Origin: Sphaerobacteraceae bacterium | GTDB lineage: Bacteria; Chloroflexota; Chloroflexia; Thermomicrobiales; UBA6265 | Direction of reading: 5' to 3' | Assembly (NCBI GenBank): GCA_016781925.1 | Contig: JADDPH010000082.1 | Coordinates: 1 to 33,998, forward strand | DNA length: 33,998 nucleotides | Translations under genes and position numbers: made by a program | In this document: piece by piece, positions 32,847 through 33,392 of the stretch | Numbering within the stretch: the first letter of the stretch is position 1 | Layout of the letters: each line of letters begins with the position of its first letter | Notes under the pieces: generated by a model | Seen by the model: only the letters and a program-made list of their open reading frames with translations | Databases searched by the model: none | Told to the model about the DNA's origin: nothing

Positions 32847-33392
32847 GTGACAGCGGCACCCGTCACCGTCTACACCACCCACACCTGACCGTGGTGCGAT
32901 CGCGCTAAGGAGTTCCTTAGCTCCCACAACGTTCCATACGTGGAGAAGGATGTTGCAAACGACTACGCGGCGGCAATGGAGATGATTCGCCGCTCCGGAC
33001 AACAGGGTGTGCCGGTCATTGCGACCGACGACGAAGTGATCCTGGGGTTCGACCAGGTGCGCCTTGCTCGGCTCGCGGAGAAACTGTCAGGGCCGAAGCG
33101 CCCTCCGCTTGGGCTGCTCGGTGCGGACGCCGAACAGTATCTCCAACGTCATCCTGAGGCCGGAAGCGGGGCGCCCGTCAAGACCGGCGTCTTCGTGGGC
33201 GAGATTCGGCCTGGGACTGTTGCCGAGCGGGCTGGACTGCGGCGAGCCGACATCATTACCTCGTTGGCCGGCAAACGCGTCAAGACCATGGCGGACATGG
33301 ACCAGATGGTGGGCACGCTCAAGGCCGGCGACGCCGTCAGCGTGCGCTTCTGGCGTGCTGGTGAGGAGCAAACGGGGACGCTCCAGTTTTAG
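32847..33392 (+). CDS. putative selenocysteine-containing glutaredoxin-like protein fused to a PDZ domain (in-frame TGA at 32886-32888 read as Sec)
   Basis: GTG 32847 preceded by AGAGAGGT (6-nt spacing). Frame reads VTAAPVTVYTTHT[TGA]PWCDRAKEFLSSHNVPYVEKDVANDYAAAMEMIRRSGQQGVPVIATDDEVILGFDQVRLARL then PDZ GVFVGEIRPGTVAERAGLRRADIITSLAGKRVKTMADMDQMVGTLKAGDAVSVRFWRAGEEQ. TGA occupies the first Cys of the CPWC active site; the downstream frame is continuous with the listed ORF 32940..33392, whose GTG lacks a recognisable Shine-Dalgarno. Confidence 0.85.
32889..32927 (+). promoter_or_regulatory. putative bacterial SECIS element (stem-loop immediately 3' of the in-frame UGA)
   Basis: GCTAAGG (32904-32910) / AGTT loop (32911-32914) / CCTTAGC (32915-32921), perfect 7-bp stem; outer GTGG (32891-32894) / CCAC (32924-32927) may extend it. 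Apical loop begins 22 nt after the UGA and has G as its second nucleotide. Confidence 0.7.

What the first reader, a model, noticed from the sequence alone, without database searches (positions are those of the whole stretch)
32889..32927. SECIS-like hairpin directly downstream of the UGA
A perfect 7-bp stem (GCTAAGG/CCTTAGC) closes a 4-nt AGUU loop 22 nt after the UGA, with a possible outer GUGG/CCAC helix. Bacterial SECIS elements lie inside the coding sequence immediately 3' of the UGA; published consensus models ask for an apical loop roughly 16-37 nt away and a G in the first two loop positions, and both hold here. The hairpin overlaps codons for AKEFLS, so RNA structure and protein are under dual constraint.
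Basis: partly seen in the sequence, partly recalled or inferred. Interest (0 to 1): 0.8.

Follow-up and report, generated by a model that had tools for sequence, protein, structure and literature searches.

The report
Selenocysteine-insertion hairpin in glutaredoxin-PDZ gene
A small RNA hairpin just after an in-frame UGA 'stop' codon is almost certainly the signal that tells the ribosome to insert selenocysteine there, because across the phylum Chloroflexota the hairpin accompanies the UGA in relatives and is missing where the codon has become an ordinary cysteine codon; the mechanism is known, but this protein family seems uncatalogued.

Summary
Confirmed and, in essence, correctly interpreted. 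The hairpin is GCUAAGG-AGUU-CCUUAGC at 32904-32921, 22 nt after the UGA at 32886-32888, inside a glutaredoxin-PDZ gene (GTG 32847 to stop 33392) of a Thermomicrobiales (Chloroflexota) genome. Taken alone it is unremarkable: 5.8% of all TGAs in the window have an equally stable SECIS-like hairpin. Comparison settles it. At least 6 of 7 stem pairs are kept in 47 of 49 UGA orthologues but in 3 of 27 Cys-codon orthologues. The stem changes by compensatory pairs that beat every shuffle, loop G-U sits at a fixed distance from the UGA in 49 of 49, and synonymous sites are frozen only in hairpin codons of UGA genes. In 9-10 of 11 independent UGA/Cys comparisons the hairpin follows the UGA; in none does it go the other way. 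The genome holds SelA, full-length SelB and a UGA-containing SelD; tRNA-Sec was not recovered there (82% complete) but is in the sister genome. Mechanism known; new is a Sec glutaredoxin-PDZ family spread over Chloroflexota, absent from the current selenoprotein inventory as far as I read it, and found in databases as truncated PDZ-only proteins.

The parts
32833..32849 (+). Shine-Dalgarno-like AGAGAGG (32833-32839) and GTG start codon (32847-32849), upstream of the UGA
   Evidence: read from sequence; relatives begin at the same place, e.g. M-S-A-P-V-T-V-Y in L027
32847..33392 (+). glutaredoxin-PDZ selenoprotein gene, 181 aa (VTAAPVTVYTTHT-U-PWC...LQF)
   Evidence: PF00462 residues 6-65 E 1.3e-17 and PF13180 residues 112-177 E 1.3e-9
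32886..32888 (+). in-frame UGA read as selenocysteine, first residue of the UPWC active-site motif
   Evidence: aligned with UGA in 48 other orthologues and with Cys codons in 27
32904..32910 (+). 5' arm of the SECIS hairpin, GCUAAGG
   Evidence: covariation with the 3' arm
32911..32914 (+). apical loop AGUU; G32912-U32913 at this distance from the UGA in 49 of 49 UGA orthologues
32915..32921 (+). 3' arm of the SECIS hairpin, CCUUAGC
32940..33392 (+). truncated 150-aa ORF (internal GTG) that ordinary gene calling gives; lacks the redox motif
   Evidence: database hits of 138-154 aa at 72-90% identity carrying PDZ domains only

Best explanation
The hairpin at 32904-32921 is the bacterial SECIS element of a selenoprotein gene. 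The full-length SelB of this bacterium, carrying Sec-tRNA(Sec), binds the apical loop (G-U) of the stem through its C-terminal winged-helix domains while the ribosome sits at UGA 32886-32888, so that the codon is decoded as selenocysteine instead of stop. The product is a glutaredoxin-PDZ protein with a U-P-W-C active site. Shown here by comparison: the gene, the Sec/Cys alternation, the covarying hairpin tied to UGA, and the Sec machinery genes. Inferred from known biology: SelB binding, read-through, and the redox function of the Sec.
For: (1) Geometry: stem 7 bp, loop 4 nt with G at position 2, 22 nt spacing, hairpin -9.0 kcal/mol, all within the published bSECIS model (PMC13188914). (2) UGA versus Cys: at least 6 of 7 pairs in 47 of 49 UGA orthologues against 3 of 27 Cys orthologues, Fisher p 2e-14, not corrected for relatedness. 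(3) Corrected for relatedness: on a tree built without the U/C residue and the hairpin codons, 11 independent UGA/Cys pairs on well-supported branches; the hairpin goes with UGA in 9 or 10, the other way in 0, sign test median p 0.002. (4) Covariation: UGA set A2 98.6% paired with 11 two-sided changes, A3 94.6% with 21 two-sided changes; 0 of 500 shuffles reach either count and slid registers fall to 37-69% paired. The Cys set is at the level of shuffles in the 4-nt-loop register, and in the other it is 45.2% paired, below two of its own slid registers. On the tree, pairs 2, 3, 5, 6 and 8 changed identity at least 4, 4, 3, 4 and 2 times. (5) Synonymous constraint only in hairpin codons of UGA genes: Leu codon entropy 0.33 bits against 2.06 expected, Glu/Gly/Ala codon 0.0 against 1.09, Ala/Val/Thr codon 0.62 against 1.76. 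(6) Amino acids bend to the RNA: in L116 and L117 Glu-Phe becomes Ala-Trp while the stem is rebuilt as GAAAGC-GUG-GCUUUC. (7) Machinery in the same genome: SelA, SelB 654 aa with SelB-wing_2 and wing_3, SelD carrying its own in-frame UGA, followed by a 7-bp GGCGCAG-GUG-CUGCGCC hairpin. tRNA-Sec with anticodon UCA in 14 of 32 genomes of the family, including the sister species G155.
Against: tRNA-Sec was not found in this genome itself (best hit 45.8 bits, annotated tRNA-Ser), though the assembly is only 82% complete. Two UGA orthologues (L042, L135) have one mismatch in the stem, and some distant ones (L107, L125, L126) have only a 6-bp, weak stem of -2.8 kcal/mol, which misses the -7.5 limit of the published model. 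No experiment shows Sec insertion.
Confidence: 0.96

Rival explanations
1. The hairpin is a by-product of protein and codon constraint (conserved AKEFLS/R peptide) with no RNA role.
For: Chance of 7 of 7 pairs given the peptide is about 1% per gene, and hairpins of this stability follow 5.8% of TGAs in this GC-rich window.
Against: Cys orthologues with similar peptides lack it (L098 and L111 keep AKEFL but not the hairpin). Leu is almost always CUU and Glu always GAG only in UGA genes. Compensatory changes alter amino acids (Ser/Arg at codon 11, Ala-Trp for Glu-Phe) while pairing is kept.
Confidence: 0.02
2. UGA is read through or recoded as another residue (Trp or Cys; altered code or general suppression), or is an error or pseudogene stop, and the hairpin does something else.
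For: tRNA-Sec not recovered in this assembly.
Against: UGA recurs at the same catalytic position in 49 orthologues with the rest of the frame open; the partner residue in relatives is Cys; ffh just upstream ends in TGA as a normal stop; selA, selB and selD are present. Family members without selA (genus g20) also lack both the gene and tRNA-Sec.
Confidence: 0.01
3. It is a SECIS, but the functional element also includes a longer lower stem such as the proposed GUGG/CCAC helix.
For: RNAfold pairs it in this sequence; E. coli fdhF has a longer lower stem.
Against: 59.5% of cells paired against 57.6% in shuffles, no covariation above control.
Confidence: 0.05

Closest known systems
Bacterial SECIS elements (bSECIS; Zhang and Gladyshev model as given in PMC13188914; E. 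coli fdhF)
   Same: in the coding sequence just 3' of the UGA, small apical loop with G then U/G, spacing 16-37 nt, read by SelB
   Different: uninterrupted 6-8 bp stem with no conserved lower stem; loop G-U at a fixed distance from the UGA (23 nt before the G) while the stem register is either 18 nt (AGUU loop) or 19 nt (GUU triloop)
Selenoprotein glutaredoxin (Grx, PF00462, UxxC; e.g. Clostridium/Alkaliphilus oremlandii Grx1)
   Same: glutaredoxin domain and UxxC motif; the best PDB sequence hits for the N-terminal domain are two glutaredoxins, 7c10 and 7c12
   Different: here fused to a C-terminal PDZ domain, in Chloroflexota
NCBIfam NF041212 / NF041114 Uxx-star glutaredoxin-like selenoproteins
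   Same: glutaredoxin-like, N-terminal Sec of the motif
   Different: below the curated cut-offs (60.5 against 66; 37.5 against 72); no PDZ in those 70-residue models
NCBIfam NF041199 Trx7/PDZ (seleno)protein
   Same: redox domain fused to a PDZ domain in a predicted selenoprotein family
   Different: thioredoxin_7 domain with CxxU, 390 positions; our protein matches only its PDZ part (32.6 bits, cut-off 300)

Membership tests
bacterial SECIS (bSECIS) | hairpin inside the coding sequence immediately 3' of an in-frame UGA | tested here: met
bacterial SECIS (bSECIS) | loop 3-9 nt, upper stem 4-16 bp | tested here: met
   4 nt and 7 bp; model
bacterial SECIS (bSECIS) | G in the first two loop positions | tested here: met
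   AGUU; G-U at this position in 49 of 49 UGA orthologues
bacterial SECIS (bSECIS) | 16-37 nt between UGA and apical loop | tested here: met
   22 nt
bacterial SECIS (bSECIS) | minimum free energy <= -7.5 kcal/mol | tested here: met
   -9.0 for the hairpin alone, -14.7 for the fragment; some distant orthologues do not reach it
bacterial SECIS (bSECIS) | structure conserved by compensatory change in UGA genes and relaxed in Cys genes | tested here: met
bacterial SECIS (bSECIS) | SelB binds the loop and Sec is inserted | not testable with these tools
   needs experiment
Sec-decoding organism | selA, selB, selD | tested here: met
Sec-decoding organism | tRNA-Sec (selC) | tested here: inconclusive
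   not found in G000, 82% complete; present in sister species G155
selenoprotein glutaredoxin (PF00462, UxxC) | PF00462 domain with Sec at the first position of CxxC, Cys homologues | tested here: met
NF041212 Uxx_star | score over curated cut-off 66 | tested here: not met
   60.5 bits
NF041199 Trx7/PDZ selenoprotein | score over curated cut-off 300, CxxU | tested here: not met
   32.6 bits over the PDZ part only

The most novel reading that the evidence does not exclude
A phylum-wide selenoprotein family, glutaredoxin(UxxC)-PDZ, uncatalogued in the 119-family inventory of PMC13188914 as far as I read it, is spread through Chloroflexota. In databases its Sec forms appear as truncated PDZ-only proteins. 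Its SECIS keeps a G-U at a fixed distance from the UGA while the stem slips between an 18-nt and a 19-nt register, and it dictates the amino acids encoded under the hairpin.
Probability: 0.8. Interest if true: 0.45.

Novelty: new member of a known kind. Interest (0 to 1): 0.4.

Why it matters
It is a clean comparative demonstration of a SECIS: at least 9 independent natural replacements in which the hairpin stands or falls with the UGA, even in genomes that keep the Sec machinery. It extends the known selenoproteome of Chloroflexota, where Thermomicrobiales are little studied for selenium use, corrects annotation (database entries lose the redox domain), and offers a set of natural SECIS variants with fixed loop position for testing what SelB reads.

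Tried and rejected
Single-sequence folding and hairpin statistics: too weak to decide. Outer GUGG/CCAC helix: rejected. tRNA-Sec in G000 and next to selA or selB: not found. First automated motif extraction of orthologues picked wrong frames and was redone from match coordinates (replaced). The relaxed hairpin criterion (6 of 7 or 6 of 8 pairs, not contiguous) lets 4 Cys genes on the tree through by chance pairing; with it 7-10 of 11 independent pairs still go the same way and none the other. Literature searches found no glutaredoxin-PDZ selenoprotein, but part of the review's table was read only by term search.

Full report
What is there. The window is contig C46 of a 2.23-Mb, 82% complete genome whose near relatives are named Thermomicrobiales (Chloroflexota). 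Downstream of ftsY and ffh lies a gene that starts at GTG 32847, seven bases after an AGAGAGG Shine-Dalgarno-like run, and runs to a TAG ending at 33392 if TGA 32886-32888 is read through. Its product is a glutaredoxin domain (PF00462, residues 6-65) joined to a PDZ domain (residues 112-177). The TGA is the first residue of the would-be CPWC motif, giving UPWC. Read with the standard code, only a 150-aa ORF from an internal GTG at 32940 remains, which lacks the redox motif. Close database relatives of 138-154 aa carry PDZ domains only, while the full-length entries keep the glutaredoxin domain.

The hairpin. GCUAAGG (32904-32910), AGUU (32911-32914), CCUUAGC (32915-32921): a perfect 7-bp stem, 22 nt from the UGA, G in loop position 2. 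It falls within the published bSECIS model (3-9 nt loop, 4-16 bp stem, G in the first two loop positions, 16-37 nt, <= -7.5 kcal/mol; PMC13188914) at -9.0 kcal/mol. By itself that proves little: 55 of 955 TGAs in this window meet the same limits at -9.0 or better, and the folding z-score is -2.0.

Comparison decides. Searches of 160 genomes of the class and 399 of the phylum gave 49 orthologues with TGA at this position and 27 with a Cys codon that I could extract. The hairpin (at least 6 of 7 pairs) is in 47 of 49 against 3 of 27 (Fisher 2e-14, uncorrected). On a maximum-likelihood tree from which the U/C residue and the hairpin codons were left out, there are 11 phylogenetically independent UGA/Cys pairs on well-supported branches. 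With the strict criterion (at least 6 contiguous pairs and a G in the loop) the hairpin goes with UGA in 9 or 10 of them, never the other way (median p 0.002). Genera g3 and g10 hold both forms: the Cys member has lost the hairpin and its UGA congeners have it. Several Cys-form genomes (G130, G150, G153) keep both SelA and tRNA-Sec, so the hairpin decays because this UGA is gone, not because the machinery is gone.

The stem changes by compensation: GCUAAGG/CCUUAGC, GCGAAGG/CCUUCGC, GCGAAAG/CUUUCGC, GUGAAAG/CUUUCAC, GCGAGAG/CUCUCGC, GUUAAGG/CCUUAAC, and GAAAGC-GUG-GCUUUC. Counted on the alignments, 98.6% and 94.6% of cells pair, with 11 and 21 two-sided changes, neither count reached by any of 500 shuffles; the split into two registers was made by better fit, which inflates percent paired but not the two-sided counts. 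On the tree these are several separate events (pairs 2, 3, 5, 6, 8: at least 4, 4, 3, 4, 2 changes). Cys orthologues are at shuffle level in the 4-nt-loop register; in the triloop register they exceed shuffles slightly (45.2% against 41.7%) but pair less well than two slid registers, so this is not structure. Synonymous codon choice is frozen only in the hairpin codons of UGA genes: the Leu codon has 0.33 bits of entropy against 2.06 expected, the Glu/Gly/Ala codon 0.0 against 1.09. The loop dinucleotide G-U sits at the same distance from the UGA in all 49, although the stem uses an 18-nt register with an AGUU loop in one set and a 19-nt register with a GUU triloop in the other. In L116 and L117 the peptide itself changed (Glu-Phe to Ala-Trp) while stem and G-U were kept.

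What fails. The genome's own tRNA-Sec was not found, which the 82% completeness can explain: the sister species and 13 other family members have it with anticodon UCA. Members of genus g20 lack selA, a full-length orthologue and a strong tRNA-Sec hit alike.

Mechanism. The genome encodes SelA, a 654-aa SelB with winged-helix domains 2 and 3, the SECIS-binding part by established knowledge, and a SelD that itself has an in-frame TGA, followed by a similar 7-bp hairpin with a GUG loop. I infer the standard pathway: SelB with GTP and Sec-tRNA(Sec) is tethered by the loop G-U and decodes the UGA as Sec. Shown: gene, Sec/Cys alternation, hairpin conservation, machinery. Inferred: binding, insertion, redox role.

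Relation to known things. The element meets every computable bSECIS criterion. The protein has the features of the known Sec glutaredoxins (UxxC), but the fusion with PDZ is not in the parts of the selenoprotein inventory I read. It falls below the cut-offs of NCBIfam Uxx-star and Trx7/PDZ. So: a known kind of element in what looks like an uncatalogued, Chloroflexota-wide selenoprotein family.

Noticed in passing
locus L151 (G000 contig C118:11471-12403, - strand): The selD gene of the same genome has an in-frame TGA at the Sec position, followed by a 7-bp hairpin GGCGCAG-GUG-CUGCGCC about 33 nt downstream: a second selenoprotein with a similar loop.
   Followed up: partly
L054 and L129 (genome G088); L124 and L055 (genome G085): Some Chloroflexota genomes carry both a Sec and a Cys paralogue of the glutaredoxin-PDZ protein; the hairpin is only in the Sec copy.
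   Followed up: partly
L098 and L111: Cys-codon orthologues that keep the peptide AKEFL and half of the old hairpin sequence, as expected of a decaying SECIS remnant.
   Followed up: no
window 29898-32508: ftsY and ffh (both SRP GTPases) lie next to each other upstream of the selenoprotein gene; a MgtC/SapB-family gene follows at 33549.
   Followed up: no
protein search hits P0003, P0004, P0028, P0030, P0100, P0108, P0120, P0121: Database proteins of 138-154 aa with only the PDZ domain are probably UGA-truncated versions of this selenoprotein; one source names two of them 'S1-C subfamily serine protease'.
   Followed up: partly
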